Origin: Paludibacter sp.
GTDB lineage: Bacteria; Bacteroidota; Bacteroidia; Bacteroidales; Paludibacteraceae
NCBI GenBank assembly: GCA_023666945.1
Contig: JAMPAY010000001.1
Span: 1-64,000, forward strand
Direction: 5' to 3'
Length of the DNA stretch: 64,000 bases
The translations under genes and the position numbers were made by a program. Below the pieces are notes generated by a model. That model saw only the letters and a list, made by a program, of their open reading frames with translations, did not search any database and was not told where the DNA came from. This document shows, one piece after another, positions 1 to 13,775 of this stretch; position 1 is the first letter of the stretch; the number at the start of each line of letters is the position of its first letter.

Positions 1-144
1 CCTAATACGTATCTACACTTCGTCAGAAAAAATATATGAGGCGATACACATTATCAGTACAAAATAAAGGTTTGTTTGATTACACAACAAAGAATAGTAA
101 GGACACAAAAAATAGGGCACATAAACACAAAACATTATTATATT

Positions 145-1053
145 ATGAAAAAATCAATACGCTTTTGTTCCATTATATGTTTTCTGTTAATGAACACCTA
201 TTTGCAGGCAGAGCCGCTCGCAGGTTTTTGCCAAACTTATATATCCACCTACGGATACACACCGGAAGAAGACCACCCAAAAACATTATCATTCAATAAG
301 GACACTCTTATAAACGGAATCACCTACTACAAAGCAGGGAACAAGCGTTTAGTGCGTACACAAGAATCACAGATAAAGTTGCGCACTGAAGACAGTCCGA
401 CAGAATACATACTCTACGATTTTGCTCTGCAGCCCGGTGATACAATGCCTCAGTTGTATTGCATTGAAGGCAACTATTGCAATAAGTTACCTACAGAGAT
501 TACCGACATGTTTCCCATTACAGACATTTTGCCCATTGACACCGTTATTGCAGTATCCACCATAATTCTGTACAATGGCGAACAACGCAAGGTTTTTATA
601 TGCAGGCAGAGATTATGTACGCCATACTATTGTAGAAGGCATAGGCAGTCTGTATACGGATTTTTTCAGTGTAATACGAACATGGCCCATTCCGACAAGC
701 AATCTTACACAAGCCGTAATATGCACATCTATTGCCCAAGAACTGCTCTACCTGATGTCAGAACAAGAACTAACCTCATACGCTTTAAAAACGACTGCCA
801 TTGCAGACAGGAATTTCCTGATACATTGGAAGACCTTCAAGCAACAAAAACGATGCTTTCGCCTAATCCTGCACAAGATTACCTACGCATGGAGGGAGAG
901 GTGGATGTAAAGGGAATGGATATGCAAGGACAAGTATTGCGGAAGAGTGCAGGAAAAGAAATAGATGTGCGGGGGCTTGCAAAGGGAGCGTATATTGCCC
1001 GCATACGGCTGCAAAACGGAACGTACAAGGCTGAATTGTTTTTGAAAGAATAG
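145..1053 (+). CDS. secreted protein with T9SS C-terminal sorting domain, probably frameshifted
   Basis: This encodes an exported protein of about 302 residues. The start at 145 gives a clean signal peptide (MKKSIRF..., then a hydrophobic stretch ending at QAEP). The last 70 or so residues (SPNPAQDYL ... GLAKGAYIARI) form a type A sorting domain of the type IX secretion system. The middle, about 598-790, reads as Cys/Arg/His-rich sequence unlike this family. The +1-shifted frame there reads YAGRDY ... VEGIGSLY ... FFSVI, which does look like this family. The frames seem to switch at a T-run (593-597) and back at an A-run (787-791). It is therefore either two compensating indels or sequencing errors. 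The function is unknown. Confidence 0.7.
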   Translation: MKKSIRFCSIICFLLMNTYLQAEPLAGFCQTYISTYGYTPEEDHPKTLSFNKDTLINGITYYKAGNKRLVRTQESQIKLRTEDSPTEYILYDFALQPGDTMPQLYCIEGNYCNKLPTEITDMFPITDILPIDTVIAVSTIILYNGEQRKVFICRQRLCTPYYCRRHRQSVYGFFQCNTNMAHSDKQSYTSRNMHIYCPRTALPDVRTRTNLIRFKNDCHCRQEFPDTLEDLQATKTMLSPNPAQDYLRMEGEVDVKGMDMQGQVLRKSAGKEIDVRGLAKGAYIARIRLQNGTYKAELFLKE

Positions 1054-1072
1054 CCCGGGGAAGGGATAATTC

Positions 1073-1121
1073 AACAATACTTCATACTTTAATAAAAATA
1101 ATATTCTATATAAGTATTGTT
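1073..1121 (+). terminator. weak hairpin after the T9SS protein gene
   Basis: AACAATACTT (1073-1082) can pair with AAGTATTGTT (1112-1121), giving a 10-bp stem with a long A/T-rich loop about 20 bp after the stop codon. The long loop makes termination uncertain. Confidence 0.35.
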
Positions 1122-1261
1122 TGGACAAATAAAACTAAGAAATAAGCCTTATAATATATCATGTACATTCAGATTGAGAGTCAAGAAAAGTTCGGTTATG
1201 AAAGTGCAAGTTTTTGCATGGGATAGTTGAACGTTGGAGTATAAATTTGTTGTTCTTGCTC

Positions 1262-1292
1262 TTGCGCAATTCAAAAAGTTGTAGTACTTTTG
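1262..1292 (+). promoter_or_regulatory. Bacteroidales-type promoter
   Basis: TTG (1262-1264) and TACTTTTG (1285-1292) are separated by 20 bp, matching the Bacteroidetes -33/-7 pattern TTG-N19-21-TAnnTTTG. Transcription would begin a few bases downstream and meet the hairpin at 1407-1440, giving an RNA of roughly 140 nt. Confidence 0.75.
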
Positions 1293-1322
1293 CAAAAAAT
1301 TAACCCAAACAAGAGAACCAAG

Positions 1323-1373
1323 ATGCAACCGATTGACAACCATAGAATTCCCCCCCCCTACTCGCAGGCATAA
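1323..1373 (+). CDS. possible 16-residue peptide or small RNA
   Basis: An ATG about 30 bp after the -7 element opens a 16-codon frame, MQPIDNHRIPPPYSQA, that stops at 1371. Three proline codons make a run of nine C (1350-1358), so slippage would change the reading frame. The unit has its own promoter and terminator-like hairpin, so the product could equally be a non-coding RNA of about 140 nt. No family is recognised, and nothing but position supports translation. Confidence 0.3.
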   Translation: MQPIDNHRIPPPYSQA

Positions 1374-1406
1374 ATAATTCTGTTTCAACAAGTTACAACA
1401 CCATAC

Positions 1407-1440
1407 AAAAGCAATACTCATTTCTATGAGTATTGCTTTT
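1407..1440 (+). terminator. perfect 15-bp hairpin terminator
   Basis: AAAAGCAATACTCAT and its exact reverse complement flank a 4-base loop. The stem ends in T residues on the plus strand and A residues at the start, so it could terminate in both directions. It separates the small transcript from the large operon at 1618. Confidence 0.75.
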
Positions 1441-1617
1441 AGTTATATATACTATCCTGGACCGAGTAAAAGAAGATGTCAGGTGACTTGGAGAAGCCCC
1501 AAAATCCGTGCCATTGCATCCTCTGTCTGTTCCGTCACCAATTGACGATGTAAATGAAATAAAAAGATATACCAATCATTTAGAAACTTAACTTTCTATA
1601 ATTCCGAAATAATTGAG

Positions 1618-3045
1618 ATGAAAGGATTTATTCGAATAATAGCAGTTGCCAGCATCTTTTTTTGTGCTTTTTCTGCATGCACAAGAGTTAGTAACAAAGG
1701 TACAAATAATGGAACCAAAAGCGTTCTTGAACAAGTAAGTGAACGTCAAGTCAATGATGAGGGGAAAATTTCAGCAGAAGATATCAAAGTCATTACAATA
1801 GTTTCTGATAAAGTTCCCAAACAAACACAAACACTGCATGTATTTATTGAAAATTCAGGTAGCATGAATGGATATATCAATAGCGCGTCTGATTTTCAAA
1901 TGTCTATTGGGAAAGCAATTCAATTGATGAAATACAAATATGGCGAAGAGAATATAAAGACCTACTATATTAATCAATCTGTTCACGAAACGCAAAGACC
2001 GGAAGGCACAGATGTTTATAGTTTCGTCCAGAAAATGCTGACTAGAAAAGATTTCACCACATCAGGAACAGGAAAAGTGGATAAAGGGACTGCCTCAACC
2101 GACCTCAATGATATTATAACAATGGTTTTAGGATATGTTGATGAAAACAACACGGCCGTATTGATTTCGGATTTTATATATTCTTTATCTTCCACAACGG
2201 GAGTCACAACCTCTCTTTTATATGGCTGTCAGAATCTAACGATGTCTGCATTCTTGCAAAAGACAAAGACACTGCCTCAAAACACTTCATTAGCAACGAA
2301 TTTAATTCAACTATATAGCAATTTTTCCGGCAAATATTGGCATTGGGAAAAGCCAACGGGAAACGGATATGTAACATTGAATTGCTCTCGCCCCTATTAT
2401 ATGTGCGTACTTGGAACGGATGACAATGTACGAGATTTCAATAAAGATGTAAACATCACAGAATTGAAAGGCTATAAGAACCAATTTACCATATCCAACA
2501 AGGATGTCTCTAAGACCAAATACACTGTTTTTGACACAAAATACAAGAGAGGTGTTTATCGTCATGGAAAAGAGAATGCAATTCACTCAATAGATAAAGC
2601 CCGCAAAAACAATATCGGGGAATTTGCATTTGGTATTGGCATTGATTTGTCGGATTTCTCTATGTCTGAAACGGACAAAACGGATGTAGCAAACTATATT
2701 GTAAAGAGAGGCAACTACGAAATTGACCATATTGAAATAATAGATACCCTGAAGTTGCCAACACCAATAGATAAAAAGTTGGTTAGAGAAAATCATTGTA
2801 CGCACGCTATTATCGTAAAAGCGACCGGTTTCCCTAATGATTTATCTATATGTATTAGAAGGGAGTTACCGAATTGGATTCGCCGCACATCTTCAATAGA
2901 TGATAGGATAATAGTTAACGACACAGAGGAGCAACTGAAAACCTTTGGAATTGCATATTTTGTAGAGGGCATTTCAGATGCCTATAAATACTTGGCAACG
3001 GACAAGAATAACTTCATGACGATAGAAGTTACAGTAAGTAAGTAA
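1618..3045 (+). CDS. VWA-like lipoprotein, first gene of the tubulin/actin/MotAB-like operon
   Basis: This 475-residue protein has a lipoprotein signal (lipobox AFSAC, Cys21), so it is probably tethered in the envelope. Residues 73-86 read VFIENSGSMNGY, the metal-binding loop of a von Willebrand factor A fold. Glu78 stands where Asp is usual, followed by Ser80 and Ser82. A later STDLNDII and an LISDFIY strand fit the other metal-site positions. The remainder is unassigned. VWA domains usually mediate metal-dependent protein contacts. It leads the operon, with 6 bp to the next gene. Its partner is unknown, but the envelope position suggests a sensor or assembly role. Confidence 0.75.
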   Translation: MKGFIRIIAVASIFFCAFSACTRVSNKGTNNGTKSVLEQVSERQVNDEGKISAEDIKVITIVSDKVPKQTQTLHVFIENSGSMNGYINSASDFQMSIGKAIQLMKYKYGEENIKTYYINQSVHETQRPEGTDVYSFVQKMLTRKDFTTSGTGKVDKGTASTDLNDIITMVLGYVDENNTAVLISDFIYSLSSTTGVTTSLLYGCQNLTMSAFLQKTKTLPQNTSLATNLIQLYSNFSGKYWHWEKPTGNGYVTLNCSRPYYMCVLGTDDNVRDFNKDVNITELKGYKNQFTISNKDVSKTKYTVFDTKYKRGVYRHGKENAIHSIDKARKNNIGEFAFGIGIDLSDFSMSETDKTDVANYIVKRGNYEIDHIEIIDTLKLPTPIDKKLVRENHCTHAIIVKATGFPNDLSICIRRELPNWIRRTSSIDDRIIVNDTEEQLKTFGIAYFVEGISDAYKYLATDKNNFMTIEVTVSK

Positions 3046-3051
3046 ACTATA

Positions 3052-3483
3052 ATGAACAACAATATGGATGGATTAATTGCGAACCTATATGAATTATTTG
3101 GTTTCTTAAACCAAGGAAATTTCTCAAATGACATGTACCAAAATGGTTTTTATAAACCTATTTTTATCATTATGATTGCCATATGTCTTGTCGTCCCCGT
3201 CTTGTACTATTATGCGATCAATCACCCACGGATAAATCGTTGGTATCATTGGTTGTTTTTCAATTTGGGTACATCGTTATTAGACTTTATCGTTGCTTGG
3301 GTTGTGGCATCTGATAAAATTGTTAACTACTATGCACAGCAAGAGATGGAAGCCCCCTACGATTGGACAAATTATTTACTCCTATCGCTAATGGCTTTCC
3401 TATGGTCATTTGTATGCTTCTTCCTTTTCTCTTTTGTAATAAAATGGTGGAGTACAAACTGCAAGCATACACCTTTTGTTTAA
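3052..3483 (+). CDS. small three-helix membrane protein of the operon
   Basis: This 143-residue protein has a polar N-terminus (1-34), three likely transmembrane helices (about 36-56, 67-87, 106-133) and a short basic, Cys/His-containing tail. I recognise no family. It starts 6 bp after the VWA gene and ends 19 bp before the tubulin-like gene, so it is surely co-transcribed. It could anchor the soluble tubulin-like or actin-like partners to the inner membrane, but this rests on position only. Confidence 0.7.
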   Translation: MNNNMDGLIANLYELFGFLNQGNFSNDMYQNGFYKPIFIIMIAICLVVPVLYYYAINHPRINRWYHWLFFNLGTSLLDFIVAWVVASDKIVNYYAQQEMEAPYDWTNYLLLSLMAFLWSFVCFFLFSFVIKWWSTNCKHTPFV

Positions 3484-3502
3484 TCTGTAACAAATAAGAT
3501 AT

Positions 3503-4984
3503 ATGAGCAAATTATTTGTATTTGGTATCGGCGGAACAGGTTCCCGTGTTCTAAAATCGCTCACCATGTTGCTTACCGCCGGTATTAAAACCAATGTTGA
3601 TGAAATTATACCTATTATCATTGACAAAGACGAAACCAATGGCGATACAGTTAGAACCAAACGCCTTATAGAAGTGTACATGTCAACTAGAGAAAAGTTC
3701 GTTCACGACAGAGACAAATTTTTCTCTACAAAGATGACACTATTAAGGTACGAATTAGAGGACAAATTATGTTTGCCTTTGGTTGATAAACAGAAAAAAT
3801 TCTCGGACTACATTGAAATTGACAAACTTCCAAAAGAAGACCGAGCATTGGTTGAGGCTCTTTTTTCAAAGAAGGCTCTTGATATGGAAACTACAGAAGG
3901 TTTTCGTGGAATACCAAGTATCGGCAGTGTTGTGCTAAATCAGTTTGAGAAATCGGATATATTCAACACTTTCGCCAATCAATTCAAGAAAGGAGATAAG
4001 ATATTCATCATTAGTTCTATATTTGGCGGAACGGGTGCAAGTGGTTTTCCTCTTTTGGTAAAGACGCTACGCGGTAATACCAATCTCACAAATTGGGATT
4101 CTGTTCAGAAAGCCCCTATTGGTGCATTATCTGTATTACCATACTTTATTGTTGGAAAACCAAATGAGAAGGGTAAGGTAAATGTCGAATCCGACACATT
4201 CAATGCTAAAGCAAAAGCAGCCTTAGCATATTACGCAGAGACACTTGATGGGCAAATTGATGAAATGTACTATGTCGGCGATAAAAAATTCTCGACATAT
4301 GCATATAGTGCAGGAGGAAGCAAGCAACAGAACCATGCTCAATTCACCGAATTGGTTGCAGCTTTATCCGTAATTGATTTTGCAAATAGCAGTATAGTGG
4401 GGACTTCAGGCAAGACATCATACAATGAGTTTGGTATCATTGATCCACAGCACTCGAAAGAAAAAATTATTTTCAGTGATCTCCACAAGAGCACACGAAA
4501 GATAATAGTAAATCCGTTGATTCAGTTCTATGCATACAGTCAGTATATGGAACTCGAGTTTGATAAAGAAAACACTCATCAGCCATGGTCGCACAACTTT
4601 CCATGGCAGAAACCATATGATTTTGATAAAGAGTTTAAGCAAAGTGCTGCTATGCAAGATATGCAAGAATGTATCAAGGACTTCATCGGTTGGCTTAAAG
4701 AACTTGCAGACACACAATCCCACAAACGTTGTTTTGTCCCGTTTAATTTGGAGTCTAAATCCTTCGCCTTTGTTTACGAACCCTCGGATAACATAGCCGT
4801 CAGGGAGGGAAGCCTTAGGTATAAAAACTGGGCTTGGCTTGACAACGAACTCAACCGAGCCAGTGCAAGAAAAGCGACACAAGTATCAGAATCAATGACT
4901 AAAGAACAGCGTTTCTTGGAGATATTCTACAGATCGACAAAGAAATTTGTCGAAGAATTAATTCCTAACTCTCAAGACAATTAA
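3503..4984 (+). CDS. tubulin/FtsZ-like GTPase (Tubulin_2-type)
   Basis: This is a 493-residue protein with a tubulin-like nucleotide-binding core. The N-terminus has FGIGGTGSRVLKSL (residues 7-20), a glycine loop at the end of the first strand. The second, diagnostic loop is SIFGGTGASG, with G175-G176-T177-G178, equivalent to the GGGTGSG signature of tubulin and FtsZ. The strand PIIIDKDE (about 33-41) follows the expected alternating fold. It is not the cell-division FtsZ, which has a different length and context. Tubulin_2-type proteins are known next to VWA proteins in bacteria. Here it sits directly before an actin-fold ATPase, which suggests NTP-driven assembly on the membrane complex. 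The substrate is unknown. Confidence 0.78.
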   Translation: MSKLFVFGIGGTGSRVLKSLTMLLTAGIKTNVDEIIPIIIDKDETNGDTVRTKRLIEVYMSTREKFVHDRDKFFSTKMTLLRYELEDKLCLPLVDKQKKFSDYIEIDKLPKEDRALVEALFSKKALDMETTEGFRGIPSIGSVVLNQFEKSDIFNTFANQFKKGDKIFIISSIFGGTGASGFPLLVKTLRGNTNLTNWDSVQKAPIGALSVLPYFIVGKPNEKGKVNVESDTFNAKAKAALAYYAETLDGQIDEMYYVGDKKFSTYAYSAGGSKQQNHAQFTELVAALSVIDFANSSIVGTSGKTSYNEFGIIDPQHSKEKIIFSDLHKSTRKIIVNPLIQFYAYSQYMELEFDKENTHQPWSHNFPWQKPYDFDKEFKQSAAMQDMQECIKDFIGWLKELADTQSHKRCFVPFNLESKSFAFVYEPSDNIAVREGSLRYKNWAWLDNELNRASARKATQVSESMTKEQRFLEIFYRSTKKFVEELIPNSQDN

Positions 4985-4988
4985 AACT

Positions 4989-7900
4989 ATGGCTGAAAAT
5001 AATAAATACGAACTCCTGACTTTAAGAGCCGATGTAGCAGGGCAAGCAGGACACTGGCAGAAGAGTACAAATTCTCCTTATGGAAAGAACAGTATTGATG
5101 AATCAAACTCTAAAAGTACTACTGAACCAACTTCTATTCCATCGCCATTTGCACGAATGGAACTGGCAAGAACTGCATTTGAGATAGCCGCTTCTTGCAA
5201 AACATGGGACGAAGTTCCCGAGCGGTATAAGAAAATTGTTTCGGACTGTTTGGATGTAGCAGAGATCTTCTTTAATTACTCAATGTATAGTAAATATATT
5301 GAGATAATTAAGTGGGATAAAAGTAATATAGGGAAAGCACCACTCAAAGATAGTGAGTTAGGGAAAGCGATGAAGAAGTTTATGGATAGCGATAAAGACA
5401 CATATCATTTTGAGGACATGAACGCCATCTATCTACTTAATTACATAGGTGATAACAGACCTAACAAAACAGGCTTAAACATAATAGGTGCAACCTCTCC
5501 TATTACGATGTTCTTTAGTGTAGATAATGATTTGAAATACGTCTCTACACACATCCACTTTACTAATAATGACAAACCATTCGACACAAGTTTCAATTCA
5601 TTAGAGAAAAGAGATGTTAGTTTCATTCAGTATCTTGCTACTCTTCCCCCAAAATACGATACAACGCAAGGCGGTACGGGAACTTTTGCAAAACATTTCA
5701 AAGCCCTACATGATTACATACAAACTGCATGCGGTCGTCTATCGGAAGGTGTTTTAGAAAAGAATAACAGCGCAAACTATAATAAAATTGAAGTAACTCC
5801 GGGGTCTAGCGACTTCGTTAATATACTTGGCTTCTTTATAGAGTGTCAAGGTTCAAAAACCCCACAACAAAGTGATTTTGAAATTAAGTCGTTGTTGGTT
5901 AGTACAGGAAAATTACCGTTGGTGCTCCCTATAGAAGTTGCTAATGCCTATCAAAATTGTGCGTACATAGATGCTAACGATTTATGGAGGAACAATCATG
6001 CCCCAGTTCGTGTAGACGAATCTCTTAATGACCGCATTTTGCCGGGAACGAACATCAAATACCCCTATTTGACAGTTTCAGATTTCTTCGAAGATACTAT
6101 CGTTAAGATGCCTTATAAACTAAATAAGATATCATACTTCGATGGTAATGCAAAAAATGATTATGAGGAGAGTTATTTACTTCCAATGACACCAACCTTC
6201 TTCAAGTATTTCACAACAGAAGATTTAAGAAGCATGATTTCTATGGAAGTAAGTGGTACAGTAGTGAAAATAGCCCTACAGATACCTATTCGGAACTATT
6301 CCAAGAAAGCAGCAGTTTCATATATTACATATACCAAGACATATCAAACCAATAAAAATGAGGCAAATAATATAGGTGACACTGTAGTTGCTAAACTTGG
6401 TTTGGGTATATTTCCACTCGTTAAGACAAACGATATTAATGTTGCCGACTATCGAGTTGCCCTATTTGATAAAGTGGGTATAGATGGCGTCCGTTTTTAT
6501 AATAAAGATACAGAACTTGAATCCGTACCCGAGAAAACAAGACGTAAACTTGAGGAAGTCTGCGGTATTAAAACATATGTCATAGAGAAACGTCATTTCG
6601 ACAGAATAGATATTCAGATAGGAGATAAACATGGATATATAGTTCCCTTGTTTAAAGAGCAGGAAGGCTCTAAACAATTCAGGTTTTCGGTTGATTTTGG
6701 TACGACTAATACTCACATTGCATACTCTATCGTTAACGAGAAAGAGTCAAGTCCATTCGACTGTGCTACTCCACAGATTGCACGTTTGCATGAGAACTAC
6801 AACGCAGATAGAGATATTATTGCTGGTTTTGAAGACAACTATCTACCAACCGGTTTGGGGGCAACAAAGATGTTATTCCCAATTAGGAGTGCATTTGCCG
6901 AGGCTCGTCCAATAGACTATGGCGATATCACGTATACACTAAGCGATGGTAATATACCTTTTCGTTATGAAAAAGTTGGTCCTGTTGAGTATTTAGATAT
7001 ACAAACAGGAGATAACCTTAAGTGGTCTGCAAACAGAGGACGTATTGGACTGTATATTAGAAACATCGCCTTTATACTTCACAATAAGGTGCTTCTTGAA
7101 AAGGGGCGGCTGAAAGATGTACAGATAAGATGGTTTTACCCTGCCAGCATGTCTACTTATGTGCGCACCATGATGGAACAGTCATGGAATAAGGCATACA
7201 CAGATTATTTTGATGCCAACTATGCAGAAGGTAGTGCCCAACTAACAAGTATGTCAGAATCGATAGCTCCCTATTGCCATTATATTAACAAAGATGAAGC
7301 TATGGGAATCGTAACGACGATAGACATCGGAGGAGGTACAACTGATGTATATGTTTCAGACGGGAAGAAGAATGAAGACGGCACTGATAATGAAGGGATG
7401 CTGCTATCATTCAGATTTGCTTCGAATGCCATCTTCGGAGATGGCTATAACAATAACATCAACAACAATGGCTTTGTCAAAAAATATCGGAAGGAGTTTG
7501 AAGATGTATTGAAGAGTGATGAAGCACTTAAGAATGCAATGAGTAAGATTGCACAAAAGGGAAATTCGTCTGAACTAATATCCTTCTTCTTCTCACTTGG
7601 GACTCTTAATAAACCAGGGGTAGATTTTATACAAAAACTCGTAGAAGATCAGAAATTTAAATATGTGTTTTTGGTATTCTATTCTGCTATCCTATATCAT
7701 GTGGCTCATGCGATGAAAGCAAAAGGAATTGACTTACCTCAAACCGTTGCATTCTCCGGAAATGGTTCAAAAACCCTGCAAGTTATTTCTCAAAGTTCTC
7801 AGGTTCAACAAGATTTTGTCAAGAAAATTTTTGAGAAGGTATATGGTAGAACATATCCCAACAATCAACGCTTCTACCTTAAATTCGACAAGGATCGTCC

Positions 7901-8336
7901 CAAAGAAGCTACCGCTAATGGAGGGCTTGAGGCTACGACAGAGCAGGCTACTGCGCAGCCGGAACAGATTGTACTTTTGGGAACAGACAATAAGACGTTT
8001 GTGGTTAATGAAAAATACGACACCATTAATGACGAACAAAAAAAGGCTGTCATAAATAATGTGATTGACTTCATCAATTTTATCCCCACGCTGAATGAGA
8101 ACAATAGATTTGGTAGTGAGTATAATCTTGATGTTACGATACTCAATAAAATCCTTGAAATTTGCAAACAAAATTTGTCAAGTTATCTTGATTTAGGTAT
8201 AGATAAAGTTTTGCAATTACTTGCAGACGACAGGGCCCGGACTACAAATATCACGGAATCGCTATTCTTCCTCCCCATTGTAGGAATGTTGAACAACTTA
8301 GCAAAAGAAATCTATGTTTTGGATTGCAATAAATAG
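4989..8336 (+). CDS. large protein with C-terminal actin/Hsp70-like ATPase domain
   Basis: This protein has 1115 residues. The first 550 or so match nothing I know. From about 565 there is an actin/Hsp70 ATPase fold: phosphate-1 loop SVDFGTTNTH (Asp569), phosphate-2 loop TIDIGGGTTDVYV (Asp779, Gly781-783) and adenosine loop AFSGNGSKTL (Gly924, Gly926). All three nucleotide motifs are intact, so ATP binding is likely. No signal or membrane helix is seen, so it should be cytoplasmic. It starts 4 bp after the tubulin-like gene. Pairing tubulin-fold and actin-fold NTPases in adjacent genes is rare. The N-terminal half may bind the partner or the target. Confidence 0.78.
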   Translation: MAENNKYELLTLRADVAGQAGHWQKSTNSPYGKNSIDESNSKSTTEPTSIPSPFARMELARTAFEIAASCKTWDEVPERYKKIVSDCLDVAEIFFNYSMYSKYIEIIKWDKSNIGKAPLKDSELGKAMKKFMDSDKDTYHFEDMNAIYLLNYIGDNRPNKTGLNIIGATSPITMFFSVDNDLKYVSTHIHFTNNDKPFDTSFNSLEKRDVSFIQYLATLPPKYDTTQGGTGTFAKHFKALHDYIQTACGRLSEGVLEKNNSANYNKIEVTPGSSDFVNILGFFIECQGSKTPQQSDFEIKSLLVSTGKLPLVLPIEVANAYQNCAYIDANDLWRNNHAPVRVDESLNDRILPGTNIKYPYLTVSDFFEDTIVKMPYKLNKISYFDGNAKNDYEESYLLPMTPTFFKYFTTEDLRSMISMEVSGTVVKIALQIPIRNYSKKAAVSYITYTKTYQTNKNEANNIGDTVVAKLGLGIFPLVKTNDINVADYRVALFDKVGIDGVRFYNKDTELESVPEKTRRKLEEVCGIKTYVIEKRHFDRIDIQIGDKHGYIVPLFKEQEGSKQFRFSVDFGTTNTHIAYSIVNEKESSPFDCATPQIARLHENYNADRDIIAGFEDNYLPTGLGATKMLFPIRSAFAEARPIDYGDITYTLSDGNIPFRYEKVGPVEYLDIQTGDNLKWSANRGRIGLYIRNIAFILHNKVLLEKGRLKDVQIRWFYPASMSTYVRTMMEQSWNKAYTDYFDANYAEGSAQLTSMSESIAPYCHYINKDEAMGIVTTIDIGGGTTDVYVSDGKKNEDGTDNEGMLLSFRFASNAIFGDGYNNNINNNGFVKKYRKEFEDVLKSDEALKNAMSKIAQKGNSSELISFFFSLGTLNKPGVDFIQKLVEDQKFKYVFLVFYSAILYHVAHAMKAKGIDLPQTVAFSGNGSKTLQVISQSSQVQQDFVKKIFEKVYGRTYPNNQRFYLKFDKDRPKEATANGGLEATTEQATAQPEQIVLLGTDNKTFVVNEKYDTINDEQKKAVINNVIDFINFIPTLNENNRFGSEYNLDVTILNKILEICKQNLSSYLDLGIDKVLQLLADDRARTTNITESLFFLPIVGMLNNLAKEIYVLDCNK

Positions 8337-9027
8337 CCTTTTTACGGCTAGGAAAATAGCGTTCTATGCACTACTAATTAGTTTGATTGCCCTTGGAGCA
8401 GCAATATACGCAATTATCAGACAAAAACGCAAGAATAAACATGCAGCCAATCGCGATGTGGATAGAAGCCCAAATCACTTAGCCAAAAATATTCAACAAA
8501 TTCCAGGGTTGCAGGAATACATAACTACAACCGTGCAGAAAATTGTTAAAAATGAGTTAACTAAAGCGTCTATTGATCCTAACGGTAAGTTGGTATCAAA
8601 AATAGCCGATGTGGTTATTTATTGCATACGCCTCGAAGAGAACGAAAGAATAAAGAATAACATTGAGCAACAATCGGTTCAACAAATTCCACTCTCGAAT
8701 CGGTCTCAACAGGAACAAGTAGCACAAAATTATTATGCTTCAGCGTTAGATGAAAGAGATAATCGTACATTCTATGCTGTTACACTAACACCGATGAAAG
8801 GAGAGACTATTTTTAAGTTCACAGAAATTCAAAAAGGGAAATGCGAATTTGAAGTATATGAAGGTGCATTCAACATGGTGCTAAAAGAGAGTGACTACCT
8901 TAATGGTGCTTGTGATTTTGAAAAGTCTGGGAACACAAGGGTAGTTACTGTCCATAAAGGTGTAGCAGAACAAAATATAGATGGGAAATGGCAAGTAAAA
9001 GAACAAGCAAAGGTTAGATTTGAATAA
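8314..9027 (+). CDS. membrane-anchored protein with C-terminal beta-rich domain
   Basis: This 237-residue protein has one N-terminal membrane helix (about 15-36) followed by a basic stretch (RQKRKNKH), so the rest is predicted cytoplasmic. A helical, Gln-rich middle (about 55-145) leads to a beta-rich C-terminal domain (FYAVTLTPMKGETIFKFTEI ... AKVRFE). I recognise no family. The start overlaps the end of the actin-like gene by 23 bp, and it is the first ATG in frame. Its stop lies 2 bp before the channel gene. It may link the cytoplasmic ATPase to the membrane channel; that is inference. Confidence 0.68.
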   Translation: MFWIAINSLFTARKIAFYALLISLIALGAAIYAIIRQKRKNKHAANRDVDRSPNHLAKNIQQIPGLQEYITTTVQKIVKNELTKASIDPNGKLVSKIADVVIYCIRLEENERIKNNIEQQSVQQIPLSNRSQQEQVAQNYYASALDERDNRTFYAVTLTPMKGETIFKFTEIQKGKCEFEVYEGAFNMVLKESDYLNGACDFEKSGNTRVVTVHKGVAEQNIDGKWQVKEQAKVRFE

Positions 9028-9029
9028 AT

Positions 9030-10793
9030 ATGGTATGGCATTATATTTTGATAGGAATAGTCATTATTTCTATCATCTGCATTCAAGTAAGAATATTTTT
9101 AAGAACTAAAAATATAAGAAAACATCTTGAGAATATCTTCCCAGAGAACTCGGAAGACGAATGGTTGGTTCAAAAAAGTGATATCGGGGTACAAATTATT
9201 TCTCAACATCTTTTTGATGCGCAAGAAAAGAAGGCTGAAATTGAAAAATCTTTATCACTAAACAACAAAGAACAGGAATTAGTTCAGAATACTATTGATA
9301 AATATGAAAAAGCCAAACAGAATGCAACGAACGATGTAGAACGTTTTCTGTATGTAAATAAGATAATAGAACAGAATGAGAAAAGGCATGGTCTTAAAGC
9401 AGAGGAGAGCGAGTTGAAAAATCAGTTGGAAGAAACAACAAAATTTATTGAGACATTTAATGGAACATGGGAACTTGGAGATAATGCAACACGGACGGAA
9501 ATTATTGAATCAATCAATAGATATCTGTATAAAAACAAAAACTCTGTCAGCGACTTCAATTTAATTCGTGATATTATTGACAGAAACTGCAGTTCTTTAG
9601 AGGAAGAAATACAAATACAACTTCCGGTACCGCTCTATTTCGGTTTGATAGGTACAATGCTAGGCATCCTGGTCGGCGTTGGTGCATTGGTCATTACGGG
9701 TTCATTGTCGAACCTATTAACTTCATTTGAACCACCAATTGGAATTAAGGAGGGAACTGCAGCATTTATGGAAGCAAAAAACGTATATGACGCTCAAGCA
9801 ACGCAGGGTATCGTATCTTTGTTTGGCGGTATTGCACTAGCGATGATCTCCAGTATAGTAGGTATATTATTAACTACTATCGGTTTTCTTGGCAACAAAA
9901 ACACAAAAGCAAATGTTGAAAGAAAGAAGCATCATTTCTTTAGTTGGTTACAAGCAGAGTTACTACCTAAAATCTCCACTGATTTTTCATCTGCTTTAAT
10001 TCGATTAGGTCACGACCTTTCGAGTTTTAATAACACATTCTCTTCTAATGCTAATTTACTAAAACAAACTATTTCCGAGATTAGTACGGCAACCGTAGCG
10101 CAGTCCGGTCTTCTTAATGCAATTGAAAGATTGGATATTGCCCATATTGCACAAGCAAATATAGTAGTGTACGAACAACTCAAGAATTGTACAGAAGACA
10201 TTTTCCGTCTATCCGTGAACTTAAAGGAGATTCAATCAAATATCAAGGGCATAGGGCAGTACATGGAGAATAGTATCAATGACTATGAACGCCGAAACAC
10301 ATTCATACAAGATGCTTCAGGTAAGGTTGACCTTGCTATTATAGAAGGTCAGAAAAAACTTACAAATGGTGCAAACGACATATTTACAAAATATGACGAA
10401 TTATTGCATACGTTATATATGAGGACAGAGGCCACCACTGTTGAACTTGCAAAAAAATATAACGAGCAAACAGAAAGTCTACACAAAGCAATAGTTAATA
10501 AACTAGGTGATGTTAAACAATTAGAGACAGAGTTGAGAAATTTAGTTGCAGTAAAAACAAGTATTACAAATCTTGAAAAGGCTGCTACAGACCAAAATCG
10601 CAAGATTGATAATTTAACTACTGCTATTCGGGATTTAGCACAAGTTAAAGTAAATGGAGGCATGACTCATATAGAAATGAAAATGCCCACAGCATATAAG
10701 GTTATTATTATATTAGCCAGCACAGTTATCACAATTTCCGGATTGTTTTTTATCACACTTCGAGTTCTTAGTATTTTTGGTATCACAATATAA
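9030..10793 (+). CDS. MotA/TolQ/ExbB-like channel subunit with long helical tail (ZorA-like)
   Basis: This protein has 587 residues. Helix 1 (about 3-25) is followed by a coiled-coil region (about 60-150). Two helices then carry the channel signature: LPVPLYFGLIGTMLGILVG (about 198-225) and QGIVSLFGGIALAMISSIVG (about 259-287). The GLIGTMLG motif is that of MotA/TolQ/ExbB proteins. Next comes about 265 residues of mostly helical tail, and then, unusually, a last membrane helix (about 556-581). The next gene overlaps by one base and encodes the MotB-like partner, so the two should form an ion-driven stator. ZorA of Zorya also has a long tail, but no terminal membrane helix in the versions I know. 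Confidence 0.78.
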   Translation: MVWHYILIGIVIISIICIQVRIFLRTKNIRKHLENIFPENSEDEWLVQKSDIGVQIISQHLFDAQEKKAEIEKSLSLNNKEQELVQNTIDKYEKAKQNATNDVERFLYVNKIIEQNEKRHGLKAEESELKNQLEETTKFIETFNGTWELGDNATRTEIIESINRYLYKNKNSVSDFNLIRDIIDRNCSSLEEEIQIQLPVPLYFGLIGTMLGILVGVGALVITGSLSNLLTSFEPPIGIKEGTAAFMEAKNVYDAQATQGIVSLFGGIALAMISSIVGILLTTIGFLGNKNTKANVERKKHHFFSWLQAELLPKISTDFSSALIRLGHDLSSFNNTFSSNANLLKQTISEISTATVAQSGLLNAIERLDIAHIAQANIVVYEQLKNCTEDIFRLSVNLKEIQSNIKGIGQYMENSINDYERRNTFIQDASGKVDLAIIEGQKKLTNGANDIFTKYDELLHTLYMRTEATTVELAKKYNEQTESLHKAIVNKLGDVKQLETELRNLVAVKTSITNLEKAATDQNRKIDNLTTAIRDLAQVKVNGGMTHIEMKMPTAYKVIIILASTVITISGLFFITLRVLSIFGITI

Positions 10794-11431
10794 TGGCAAA
10801 GCAAGAATCGTTTTTTTGGACCAGTTATTCTGACTTGATGACAAGCATGTTCTTCATCATGCTTGTGCTATTTGTGTTAGTAGTTGCTTTGCTTCATCGT
10901 AAGATAGGTGATATTGATGCAGAAAGAAAAGCTACTACCGAACAGTTGCAAGTAATAAAAGAAATTGAAGAAGCCACACACAATATTGACTCTACTTATT
11001 TTGTATATAATCCTGAATATAAAAAACATGTGCTAAATATTACAGTTCAGTTTAAAACAGGTATTGCCGATATGGACGACATTGACTCTATTACGCAAAA
11101 TGATTTAATCAAAGCAGGAGAGAGCATACAAACTTTCATCGAAAAAATTACAGAAGAACATCCCGAAGTTCAATATCTACTAGTAATCGAGGGACAGGCT
11201 TCGAAAGATGCATATCAAAAGAATTACGAATTAAGTTATCGTAGAGCATTAGCGTTAAAGCAACTTTGGGATGATAGATGCATAAGATTCGGTAAAAAAT
11301 GTGAAGTTGTCATTGGTGGTAATGGCGATGGGAAATTGTCGGGCACTAATTTTATGAGAGAAGAGAAAGAGTCAAAGAACCAAAGATTTTTAATACACAT
11401 ATTGCCGAAAACATCTATCCCAGAGAAATGA
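10793..11431 (+). CDS. MotB/OmpA-like stator partner (ZorB-like)
   Basis: This 212-residue protein begins FFWTSYSDLMTSMFFIM, matching the MotB membrane helix WxxSYxDLMT. Asp14 is the expected proton-binding residue. After the helix (about 16-38) and a linker, residues about 80-205 form an OmpA/MotB-type peptidoglycan-binding fold (VQFKTGIADM, LLVIEGQASKD, NYELSYRRALAL). Its start overlaps the MotA-like stop (TAATG), and its stop overlaps the next ATG (ATGA). Together with the upstream gene it should form a proton-driven motor anchored to the cell wall. Confidence 0.8.
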   Translation: MAKQESFFWTSYSDLMTSMFFIMLVLFVLVVALLHRKIGDIDAERKATTEQLQVIKEIEEATHNIDSTYFVYNPEYKKHVLNITVQFKTGIADMDDIDSITQNDLIKAGESIQTFIEKITEEHPEVQYLLVIEGQASKDAYQKNYELSYRRALALKQLWDDRCIRFGKKCEVVIGGNGDGKLSGTNFMREEKESKNQRFLIHILPKTSIPEK

Positions 11432-12714
11432 AATTGAAAACATTCATATTAGTTCTTACTGCAATTTTCAGTTGTTGTTGCACACGAAGAAGCAATAACT
11501 TCGGCAACCATCAAGACCATAACAACGCACAACCAAAAGAATCTACTATCAAATCCGTTAACTCAGGCTCTGACATAGTTGATATATCTACAAACCTGCC
11601 TTCTGTATCAGAGAGAAAATATATAGGAACTGAAATTTTTGACAAATACAACTCTGCTGTATTTATGATTTTTACTTCAGATGGACTAAATGAGTTCCAA
11701 GGGTCTGGTTTTTTCATAGATTCGGATGGTCTTGCAGTCAGTAATTATCATGTATTTGAGGGGACAGGCATAGGATTGGAGACAATTAAATTATCAAATG
11801 GAAGGATATATAAAATAAAAAATATAATTGCACAGAATAAGGATTATGATTTTATCATATTCAAAGTTGATATAAACCAAAAATGCAATTATATTCCTAT
11901 GACAAACAGACATAACAAAATAGGAGAAAAGATATTCACTATAGGCAGCCCAATGGGGTTAGAAAACACATTTTCATCTGGGGAAATATCACAATTAAGA
12001 GGAGAATATATTATTCAAATAAATGCTCCCATTGACCATGGTAGCAGTGGTGGAGCACTTATTAACGAGTATGGAGAAGTTATTGGGATAACAAGTTCAG
12101 GGTATGACAATTCCAATGCGAACCTCAACTTTGCAATCGACATCTGCATTATAAAATCAAGTATAAACAGTCATAATACGGCTTCTGCATATCAGTGGAC
12201 TCAAGAAGAACTAATTAACGCCAACACTGCTGACAATATAGAGGAGTTGACACGCAAAGAAAGAGATGTCATTAAGTTTCTTAATCTAGCAAGACTATAC
12301 CCACAACGGTTTATACAAATAGAGTTGCGCTCAGATAGAGTAAAGCGATATTCAAATAGTTCATATTTGACTTCACTAATAGAAGAGTTGTCTGTGCTTC
12401 AACCATTGAATCCTTTTTATTTTAATGAAGAAATGCAAGCATTTGCTGAGTGCTGGGCTATTGAAAGTGGAAAGCACGCTATACTCGGACATGATCGGGA
12501 GGGGTATTGTACAGACGGATTTTTTGCAGAATGTTGTTCTTATGGACCACAAACTGCCGAAGAAATAGTGGTGGGACTTTTAGTTGACTATAACATTCCA
12601 AGTTTAGGGCATCGTAAAACATTATTAGGCAATTATAATAGCGTAGGAGTTGCAATCGCATCACATAAAAGTAAATATCAACAATGTTGCGTAATAGACC
12701 TAAAAAAAATATAA
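11428..12714 (+). CDS. lipoprotein with trypsin-like (HtrA-type) protease and CAP domain
   Basis: This 428-residue protein has a lipoprotein-like signal (AIFSCCC, Cys16-18). Residues about 70-250 are a trypsin-like serine protease with an intact triad: His108 (NYHVFEG), Asp141 (DYDFIIF) and Ser207 (HGSSGGAL). From about 270 a CAP/SCP-like domain follows (KFLNLARLYPQRF, AECWAIESGKHA, SLGHRKTLLGNY). No PDZ domain is seen, unlike classical HtrA. Protease-CAP fusions are uncommon. As the only apparent hydrolase in the operon it is a candidate effector, or a processing factor in the periplasm. ATGA overlap with the MotB-like gene indicates translational coupling. Confidence 0.8.
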   Translation: MKLKTFILVLTAIFSCCCTRRSNNFGNHQDHNNAQPKESTIKSVNSGSDIVDISTNLPSVSERKYIGTEIFDKYNSAVFMIFTSDGLNEFQGSGFFIDSDGLAVSNYHVFEGTGIGLETIKLSNGRIYKIKNIIAQNKDYDFIIFKVDINQKCNYIPMTNRHNKIGEKIFTIGSPMGLENTFSSGEISQLRGEYIIQINAPIDHGSSGGALINEYGEVIGITSSGYDNSNANLNFAIDICIIKSSINSHNTASAYQWTQEELINANTADNIEELTRKERDVIKFLNLARLYPQRFIQIELRSDRVKRYSNSSYLTSLIEELSVLQPLNPFYFNEEMQAFAECWAIESGKHAILGHDREGYCTDGFFAECCSYGPQTAEEIVVGLLVDYNIPSLGHRKTLLGNYNSVGVAIASHKSKYQQCCVIDLKKI

Positions 12715-12727
12715 GAAAAGAAAGAAT

Positions 12728-12904
12728 ATGACACATAACATTCTTTTAATAATTATTGGCTTTATTTTATGGAATTTTATTCCCGGAAAGATTACAGCGG
12801 GGTCAAAAAAAATACGCCCATATATTGATTTGGGAGCACAGATTTTGGGGATTCTTTTAATGTTAACCGGTGGTATCAATATGATTAAACTAATCATATC
12901 ATAA
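12728..12904 (+). CDS. 58-residue membrane protein closing the operon
   Basis: This small frame, MTHNILLIII ... NMIKLIIS, has two hydrophobic helices (about 4-20 and 35-57) joined by a basic loop (GKITAGSKKIR). It starts 13 bp after the protease-CAP gene and lies before the terminator at 12942. Same strand, tight spacing and membrane character support a real gene. No family is recognised. It could be an accessory subunit of the channel or an inhibitor of the system. Confidence 0.55.
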   Translation: MTHNILLIIIGFILWNFIPGKITAGSKKIRPYIDLGAQILGILLMLTGGINMIKLIIS

Positions 12905-12941
12905 GAGACAAGTTCCTAACTCCTACAAAATTTCGAAGATG

Positions 12942-12983
12942 ATACAACTCTTGATATAACTATAGTCGTATCAAGAGTTGTAT
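12942..12983 (+). terminator. perfect 15-bp hairpin ending the operon
   Basis: ATACAACTCTTGATA (12942-12956) pairs exactly with TATCAAGAGTTGTAT (12969-12983) and is followed by TTATT. It lies 38 bp after the last gene and could also terminate the convergent gene at 13005. Confidence 0.75.
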
Positions 12984-13004
12984 TTATTACGCATTGATAT
13001 TTTT

Positions 13005-13352
13005 TTAGTTGTAAAGTTTCTTTTTTGGGTAGTCATAACGTTTTTGTCTGTTAGTCTTCCCAATGGATAGATAGAAATCTATATACCACTTGACAAATTC
13101 TTCTCCATTACACAACCCCACCCAATGTTCATACCGATTGAACAATTGTGCCTTTAAAGTTAATGGAGTTCCATCTTCTTCTTTCATAAACTGATCAAGG
13201 CCAAGTATATGCATATACTCAATCTCTTCAGTCCACTTTATTTTAGGATGTGTTACCCAATGACGCTCATAGTCCCAAATCAAAGCATTTTGATTATTCG
13301 GACAGGAATCTTCTCCATTGTAAACACGGCAATCGAGTGTTCTATGTTTCAT
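13005..13352 (-). CDS. small hypothetical protein
   Basis: This is a soluble protein of about 115 residues with many aromatic and charged residues (ALIWDYERHWVTHP, FNRYEHWVGLCNGEEFVKWYIDFYL). There is no signal peptide or membrane helix. The start at 13352 (MKHRTLDCRVYNGE) is preferred; an in-frame ATG four codons upstream is possible. A -7-like TAAATTTG lies just upstream on the minus strand (13369-13376). No known domain is recognised. It faces the large operon tail to tail and lies 99 bp after the DUF4491 gene. Confidence 0.55.
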   Translation of the reverse strand: MKHRTLDCRVYNGEDSCPNNQNALIWDYERHWVTHPKIKWTEEIEYMHILGLDQFMKEEDGTPLTLKAQLFNRYEHWVGLCNGEEFVKWYIDFYLSIGKTNRQKRYDYPKKKLYN

Positions 13353-13451
13353 TTCTTCTGTCATACTGCAAATTTAATCTTTTATAGCACACCCATATTC
13401 AAGGAATGTATCCGGTATGGAGAGGCAGAAACAAGTGGTGTGTTGGTGTAA

Positions 13452-13754
13452 CTATTTTTTCTCGGAAGGTGCTGCACGTTTGGGGTTGCGAGGGAACCAT
13501 CCTTTCTCGACCCGTTTTTCTTGTTCAAACAATTCGAAGATACTCCAAAAGCACGAGAAGGAGAATACCCCCAACAAAACAGAACAGACATCTTCCTCCA
13601 CAAAAAGCGATGCTACAGATGCAGCCACTCCAACCAACAAAAAGACCCACCAACAGCGTTTGGTGAAATAGTATTCCGCCTTAATAACTATAGGATGAAA
13701 CATACCGATACAAAGAAAAGTAGCCGCACCAATTAAAAGACCATTGAAAGACAT
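13452..13754 (-). CDS. DUF4491 family membrane protein
   Basis: This 100-residue protein has three predicted membrane helices (about 5-30, 34-52, 56-76) and a conserved basic tail, FEQEKRVEKGWFPRNPKR. The length and the motifs FHPIVIKAEYYF and CFWSIFELFEQEKRV match the DUF4491 family common in Bacteroidales. No biochemical role is known. It lies 21 bp after the cytochrome c maturation gene, so it is probably in the same operon. Confidence 0.85.
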   Translation of the reverse strand: MSFNGLLIGAATFLCIGMFHPIVIKAEYYFTKRCWWVFLLVGVAASVASLFVEEDVCSVLLGVFSFSCFWSIFELFEQEKRVEKGWFPRNPKRAAPSEKK

Positions 13755-13775
13755 AAAAAGTGATATATTACAAAA

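What the first reader, a model, noticed from the sequence alone, without database searches (positions are those of the whole stretch)
3503..8336. Adjacent tubulin-like and actin-like ATPases
The 4-bp gap between a protein with GGTGAS-type tubulin loop (G175-G178) and one with DFGTTN / DIGGGTTD / AFSGNGS actin loops implies co-translation. Few loci pair both cytoskeletal folds outside cell division. The first 550 residues of the ATPase match nothing I know and may be the specific part.
Basis: partly seen in the sequence, partly recalled or inferred. Interest (0 to 1): 0.72.

Follow-up and report, generated by a model that had tools for sequence, protein, structure and literature searches.

The report
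Tubulin-actin pair with Zorya-like motor
A bacterium of the Bacteroidota carries an eight-gene, patchily distributed operon that encodes a tubulin-fold and an actin-fold protein side by side, together with an ion-driven motor like that of the Zorya anti-phage system; the layout recurs in several bacterial phyla and looks like a membrane-anchored defence or envelope-response machine rather than cell division.

Summary
ORFs 3503-4984 and 4989-8336 are 4 bp apart. The first has a divergent tubulin/FtsZ GTPase fold with invariant T1 and T4 glycines. The second has an actin/Hsp70/MreB-fold ATPase core with invariant phosphate-1, phosphate-2 and catalytic-Glu positions, plus a conserved N-terminal ~500 residues matching nothing known. 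The pair sits in a low-GC eight-gene operon (1618-12714): vWA-like lipoprotein, 3-TM protein, tubulin, actin, TM-anchored adaptor, ZorA/MotA-like and ZorB/MotB-like motor proteins, HtrA+CAP lipoprotein. In 43 of 47 loci found through the tubulin alone, the actin-like gene is next. The vWA-TM-tubulin-actin set also occurs in Clostridiales and on cyanobacterial plasmids. The adaptor's C-terminal domain is fused to the actin-like ATPase in two loci and to the motor's tail in one. The tubulin belongs to the Tubulin_2/FtsZl1 group, known with vWA and OmpA genes (Makarova & Koonin 2010) and in GTPase-centred conflict systems (Kaur 2020). Most likely it is an envelope-anchored response module, probably anti-phage or anti-injury, in which a ZorAB-type motor is coupled through the adaptor to the NTPase pair. 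Composition is well supported; function is inferred. Filament formation was not testable here.

The parts
1618..3045 (+). A: vWA-like lipoprotein (475 aa; signal peptide with lipobox Cys21; MIDAS-like ENSGSM, then LISDF)
   Evidence: alignment A7, (C21, D185 invariant; S80, G85, S184 nearly so); no Pfam/PDB match, so the vWA assignment rests on motifs and on homologues with DGSGSM in cyanobacteria
3052..3483 (+). B: small inner-membrane protein, 3 predicted TM helices
   Evidence: present in most loci
3503..4984 (+). C: tubulin/FtsZ-fold GTPase-like protein of the Tubulin_2 (FtsZl1) group
3527..3547 (+). tubulin T1-like loop IGGTGSR (aa 9-15)
   Evidence: G10-G13 invariant in 37 homologues
4022..4042 (+). 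tubulin T4 loop FGGTGAS (aa 174-180)
   Evidence: F174-G178 invariant
4989..8336 (+). D: actin/Hsp70-fold ATPase with a family-specific N-terminal region
5139..6668 (+). D, N-terminal region (aa 51-560): ordered in the model, alpha/beta then beta-rich, no known family
6675..8333 (+). D, actin-fold core (aa 563-1115): DFGTTN, catalytic-Glu SES (E757), DIGGGTTD, AFSGNGS
8314..9027 (+). E: N-terminal TM, linker, conserved C-terminal domain; proposed adaptor
8722..9024 (+). E C-terminal domain (aa 137-237), elsewhere fused to the D C-terminus (L033, L135) or to the F tail (L102)
9030..10793 (+). F: ZorA/MotA/ExbB-like motor subunit with TM segments and a long tail; T209 and S275 invariant
10793..11431 (+). 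G: ZorB/MotB-like protein, 1 TM and OmpA-like peptidoglycan-binding domain
10832..10834 (+). G Asp14 codon: aligns with the ion-binding Asp26 of ZorB; invariant
11428..12714 (+). H: lipoprotein-like HtrA-type serine protease with C-terminal CAP domain (accessory, variable)
12942..12983 (.). 21-nt inverted repeat, probable terminator after the operon
1407..1440 (+). terminator-like stem-loop upstream of the operon

Best explanation
The tubulin-actin pair is the NTPase heart of an accessory, membrane-anchored module: vWA-like lipoprotein (A), 3-TM protein (B), tubulin-fold GTPase (C), actin/Hsp70-fold ATPase (D) and TM-anchored adaptor (E). In this operon the module is combined with a ZorAB-type, ion-driven, peptidoglycan-bound motor (F, G) and a secreted HtrA+CAP protein (H). 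Shown by sequence or model: fold and family of C, D, F, G and H; conserved gene order; conserved nucleotide-site and ion-path residues; fusions linking the E domain with D and with the tail of F. Inferred: A, B and G sense a disturbance of the envelope such as phage attachment, DNA injection or wall damage; ion flow turns or tilts the F tail, as proposed for Zorya; E passes this to D and C in the cytoplasm; nucleotide-driven assembly or conformational change of C and D at that site then blocks the intruder or remodels the membrane. H may act as a periplasmic effector or repair enzyme.
For: Operon with overlaps or short gaps, bounded by stem-loops; operon G+C 36% against 43% for the rest of the window. 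Of 47 loci found through the tubulin and having a downstream gene, 43 have D next; vWA-like and TM genes usually lie directly upstream; MotA/MotB-like genes occur in 30 of 65 pair-bearing loci. Same order in Clostridiales (L138) and same gene set on cyanobacterial plasmids (L140, L141). C and D distances are correlated (Spearman 0.88 over 62 loci, 0.72 within the closer group; reached by 0 of 499 permutations). G profile against ZorB: 1e-19 (8vvn) and 4e-13 (8qyd), with Asp14 on ZorB Asp26; F against ZorA: 1.5e-6 and 4.7e-6 in the TM region. Fusions E-D (L033, L135) and E-F (L102). Patchy distribution: 13 of 120 genomes of the family, none of 7 other genomes of the genus. More distant loci carry GAP1-N2, DO-GTPase, TerD, kinase-like or PP2C-like genes, some of which belong to predicted conflict systems (PMC7159879).
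Against: No locus examined shows ZorC, ZorD, ZorE or another nuclease effector next to the module. Flanks are mostly housekeeping; 65 flanking proteins gave only scattered PADLOC matches, without a control set. More than half of the pair-bearing loci lack recognised MotA/MotB, so the motor is not part of the core (some of these loci are truncated). No phage-challenge data exist. Polymer formation by C is doubtful because the T7 loop and the canonical C-terminal domain were not found. The E-F fusion is one case with E 6.5e-6.
Confidence: 0.45

Rival explanations
1. Membrane-remodelling or vesicle machine, as Makarova and Koonin proposed for the FtsZl1 family: C and D form a scaffold on the inner membrane that, with vWA and OmpA-like partners, shapes the envelope under stress, without any role in defence.
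For: vWA + Tubulin_2 + OmpA-type neighbours match the 2010 description; the partners are membrane or secreted proteins; an HtrA-type protease is typical of envelope stress; flanks are not evident defence islands.
Against: Patchy distribution and low G+C suggest an accessory, transferred function; the motor is closest to ZorAB among solved structures; a related locus carries conflict-system genes.
Confidence: 0.3
2. Ion-driven envelope transporter or secretion energiser of the Tol/Exb/GldLM kind, with C and D as cytoplasmic regulators.
For: F and G belong to the MotA/TolQ/ExbB and MotB groups.
Against: No TonB-, Tol- or Gld-type partner or outer-membrane channel recognised in the operon; motor genes are missing in many loci that keep C and D.
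Confidence: 0.1
3. DNA or plasmid partition system using TubZ-like and ParM-like filaments.
For: D matches a phage partition-protein family (phrog_691, 1.8e-7); some homologues are on cyanobacterial plasmids.
Against: No recognised DNA-binding adaptor in the operon and no direct-repeat centromere around it; linked genes are membrane or secreted proteins.
Confidence: 0.04
4. Duplicated FtsZ/FtsA pair acting in cell division.
For: Adjacent tubulin and actin folds are also the ftsA-ftsZ arrangement; FtsA is among the weak matches of D.
Against: An ordinary ftsA-ftsZ pair exists on contig C25; the module is absent from most relatives; sequence is far from FtsZ/FtsA.
Confidence: 0.03

Closest known systems
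FtsZ-like 1 (FtsZl1 / Pfam Tubulin_2) vWA-OmpA systems, Makarova & Koonin 2010 (PMC2875224)
   Same: Divergent FtsZ-like GTPase domain with T1 and T4 loops, no identifiable T6-H7, helical C-terminus; operons with vWA and OmpA-domain genes and membrane proteins; kinases and GTPases in some relatives.
   Different: Most FtsZl1 proteins described there have an extended coiled coil (the type protein is 1051 aa), here ~490-570 aa without it. The main text names no actin-fold partner and no MotA-like motor (the supplement was not readable here). The window protein scores just below the Tubulin_2 cut-off.
GAP1-N2 GTPase-centric conflict systems with tubulin / HSP70 themes, Kaur et al. 2020 (PMC7159879)
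   Same: Tubulin-family and vWA genes, membrane association, mobile neighbourhoods; a distant locus of this family (L165, with a like-ordered neighbourhood in L166) carries GAP1-N2 and DO-GTPase.
   Different: The window operon has neither GAP1 nor DO-GTPase; the paper treats tubulin and HSP70 as separate themes and reports the systems as nearly absent from cyanobacteria; D is not a canonical Hsp70.
Zorya anti-phage systems (ZorAB motor), PMC11890865
   Same: Motor pair of the ZorA/ZorB type: long F tail, G with the ZorB-like Asp and peptidoglycan-binding domain.
   Different: No ZorC, ZorD or ZorE; tubulin/actin NTPases take the cytoplasmic place.
SrfB (Pfam PF07520)
   Same: Large bacterial protein with an actin-like phosphate-binding motif.
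   Different: Only marginal matches around phosphate-2; no SrfA or SrfC recognised in the operon.

Membership tests
FtsZl1 / Tubulin_2 | FtsZ-like GTPase domain with GGTG-type T4 loop | tested here: met
   Tubulin_2 6e-6 in the window protein (26.1 bits, cut-off 27, so just under it); 29 of 37 family members match, best 4e-10
FtsZl1 / Tubulin_2 | T6-H7/T7 elements not identifiable, C-terminal part mostly helical | tested here: met
   secondary structure; no NxDxxD/E motif conserved
FtsZl1 / Tubulin_2 | operon with vWA protein and often OmpA-domain protein | tested here: met
   vWA-like A by motif only; OmpA-like G
FtsZl1 / Tubulin_2 | extended coiled-coil region after the GTPase domain (majority of members, not stated to be universal) | tested here: not met
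   493 aa, no such region in the model; for this reason filed as a divergent member of the Tubulin_2 group, not as typical FtsZl1
Tubulin/FtsZ proper | T7 catalytic loop and C-terminal domain for polymer contacts | tested here: inconclusive
   not identified; low TM-scores
Actin/Hsp70/MreB superfamily | phosphate-1, connect-1 Glu, phosphate-2 and adenosine motifs in an actin fold | tested here: met
Hsp70 (DnaK) | HSP70 family match with C-terminal substrate-binding domain | tested here: not met
   no HSP70 Pfam match; C-terminus helical
5:2 rotary motors (MotAB/ZorAB) | A-type subunit with conserved Thr/Ser in the TM pair; B-type with TM Asp and OmpA-like domain | tested here: met
5:2 rotary motors (MotAB/ZorAB) | 5:2 assembly and ion flow | not testable with these tools
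   needs cryo-EM and ion-flux assays
Zorya | ZorC/ZorD or ZorE effector genes | tested here: not met
   not in the window operon; not recognised in related loci, where only selected neighbours were scanned
GAP1-N2 conflict systems | GAP1 plus DO-GTPase | tested here: not met
   absent from the window operon; present in distant relative L165

The most novel reading that the evidence does not exclude
A new kind of envelope machine in which an ion-driven ZorAB-type rotary motor is mechanically coupled, through the adaptor domain E, to a tubulin-fold GTPase and an actin-fold ATPase acting as one NTPase unit, so that an envelope event triggers cytoplasmic assembly; probably an undescribed immune system.
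Probability: 0.3. Interest if true: 0.88.

Novelty: new variant of a known kind. Interest (0 to 1): 0.62.

Why it matters
Bacterial tubulin- and actin-fold proteins are known mainly from division, shape and plasmid partition. Here the two folds form a conserved pair in an accessory, membrane-linked module found in several phyla, in many cases with the motor type that drives Zorya defence. If the motor and the NTPase pair work together, this would be a new way to turn an envelope signal into a cytoplasmic response. It would also give a concrete, testable function to the FtsZl1/Tubulin_2 proteins, whose role has been open since 2010.

Tried and rejected
Phage records: no tubulin match. PDB search with the vWA-like profile: no match, so 'vWA-like' rests on motifs. 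Profile comparison with the genome's own FtsZ and FtsA as single sequences gave no significant score (in one search the FtsZ entry was FtsA by mistake, corrected). Search of SrfB in control genomes rang nowhere. Partition hypothesis set aside for lack of repeats and a DNA-binding partner. Division hypothesis set aside because ftsA-ftsZ lies elsewhere. Plain 'Zorya system' rejected: no ZorC, D or E. First distance-correlation script timed out, repeated with a faster aligner. Viral structure library: only Hsp70/actin-like proteins among the good matches. Searches centred on L137 and L138 were not possible. No Rfam family in 1-14000.

Full report
1. Observation. The named motifs are real and conserved: the tubulin T1 and T4 glycines are invariant in 37 homologues, and the phosphate-1, catalytic-Glu and phosphate-2 residues in 34 actin-like homologues. 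The tubulin protein matches Pfam Tubulin_2 and Tubulin below the curated cut-offs; 29 and 30 of 37 family members match them too. Its model (pLDDT 84, pTM 0.91) finds FtsZ, CetZ and tubulins first, at modest TM-scores. The actin-like model (pLDDT 84, pTM 0.69) finds DnaK, MreB, BeeR, ParM and actin; by sequence the profile finds a BeeR actin-family protein and MreB at about 1e-6 and Hsp70 more weakly.

2. What surrounds it. The pair is genes 3 and 4 of an eight-gene operon, 1618-12714, in which neighbouring genes overlap or lie within about 20 bases of each other. There is a terminator-like stem-loop upstream at 1407-1440 and a 21-nt inverted repeat downstream at 12942-12983. Operon G+C is 36%, the rest of the window 43%. 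Gene A is a lipoprotein with a MIDAS-like ENSGSM motif; B has three TM helices; E has an N-terminal TM and a conserved C-terminal domain; F and G are a MotA/ZorA-like and a MotB/ZorB-like protein; H is an HtrA-type protease with a weak CAP match. Genes further downstream are ordinary: cytochrome c biogenesis, di-haem oxidoreductase, imelysin, hybrid two-component system, FtsH.

3. The module recurs. Searches found tubulin relatives in 18 of 295 genomes of the order, 24 of 395 of the class and 13 of 120 of the family, but in none of 7 other genomes of the genus. In two genomes of the genus the adjacent cytochrome c cluster is conserved without the operon. In 43 of 47 loci found through the tubulin alone and with a gene downstream, the actin-like gene is next, mostly within 40 bp. 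vWA-like and TM genes usually lie just upstream. Named carriers include Gillisia, Christiangramia, Maribacter, Hymenobacter, Pedobacter, Prevotella and Bacteroides luti, plus a Clostridiales bin with the whole core and a Sericytochromatia contig with the actin-like gene. Plasmids of Picosynechococcus and Gloeothece carry a vWA-like gene, a TM gene, tubulin and actin together; in Gloeothece the vWA-like gene is on the opposite strand. Distances of C and D between loci are correlated (Spearman 0.88), as expected if they travel together, although shared ancestry contributes to this.

4. The motor. The G profile matches ZorB structures at 1e-19 and 4e-13 and puts invariant Asp14 on ZorB Asp26. The F profile matches ZorA at 1.5e-6 and 4.7e-6 in the TM region, with conserved Thr and Ser; coiled-coil proteins score similarly through the F tail, so the TM segment is the informative part. 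Several F homologues match PADLOC ZorA models although the window protein itself does not. Thirty of 65 pair-bearing loci carry F and/or G, so the motor is a frequent partner, not a fixed part. A locus of another kind (L142, Parabacteroides plasmid) has a close F-G pair near a DUF4433-annotated gene and no tubulin or actin.

5. The adaptor. A profile of the C-terminal domain of E, built without the window, finds the window E at 1e-15. It also finds the domain at the end of the actin-like ATPase in L033 (2.7e-17) and L135 (2.3e-13), where F follows D directly with no separate E gene between, and, more weakly, at the end of the F tail in L102 (6.5e-6). Such fusions suggest that E, D and F meet in the cytoplasm.

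6. Mechanism. Shown: composition, folds, conserved active-site and ion-path residues, gene order, fusions. Inferred: A, B and G sense the envelope; ion flow moves the F tail as proposed for Zorya (PMC11890865); E transmits to D and C; nucleotide-dependent assembly or switching follows. Anti-phage or anti-injury response is the leading reading because of patchy distribution, the ZorAB relationship and the conflict- or stress-system partners of distant relatives (GAP1-N2 and DO-GTPase in L165, TerD in L117). Against it: no known effector nuclease, and flanks that are not evident defence islands (no control set). Membrane remodelling (PMC2875224) is the main rival. Whether C and D form filaments is open, since the T7 loop and the usual C-terminal domain of C were not found.

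7. Known or new. The tubulin belongs to a group described in 2010 with vWA and OmpA genes; tubulin-containing neighbourhoods were treated in 2020 within GTPase-centred conflict systems. I found no paper in the held library that describes the conserved actin-fold partner, the adaptor E, or the ZorAB-type motor in these loci; subscription papers and the 2010 supplement were not readable. I therefore call it a new variant of a known kind.

Noticed in passing
L142 (Parabacteroides distasonis plasmid, NZ_OY725823.1) 6704-10826: A close relative of the F-G motor pair (2.7e-82 and 1.2e-74) lies after a gene annotated as DUF4433 and a small gene, without tubulin, actin or vWA: possibly a separate motor-based system in Bacteroidota.
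   Followed up: partly
L033 7701-11198, L135 9965-13498, L102 4198-6300: The E C-terminal domain is fused to the actin-like ATPase (two loci) or to the tail of the MotA-like protein (one locus).
   Followed up: yes
L117 2417-4358 and L121 4172-6063: Distant members of the module are followed by TerD-type genes (one confirmed by Pfam at 1.3e-43, the rest by resemblance), suggesting a link with Ter stress systems.
   Followed up: partly
L165 1-3764 and L166 1-3559: Tubulin-actin loci with a GAP1-N2 protein and a DO-GTPase downstream (Pfam-tested in L165, similar ORFs in L166), which tie this module to the GTPase-centred conflict systems of Kaur et al. 2020.
   Followed up: partly
L168 625-17215: Distant member in a locus that also has an Eco57I-type restriction-modification methylase upstream and a true Hsp70 gene directly downstream.
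   Followed up: no
L138 991-2469: In a Clostridiales bin the module lies just downstream of spoIVA, itself an ATPase gene of spore-coat assembly; probably only a neighbour.
   Followed up: no
window 1350-1358: Run of nine C upstream of the operon; one in the window where 0.19 are expected by chance; might be a slippage site or nothing.
   Followed up: no
window 12729-12900: Small ORF (fewer than 60 aa) with hydrophobic stretches after gene H, before the inverted repeat; may be a ninth gene of the operon.
   Followed up: no
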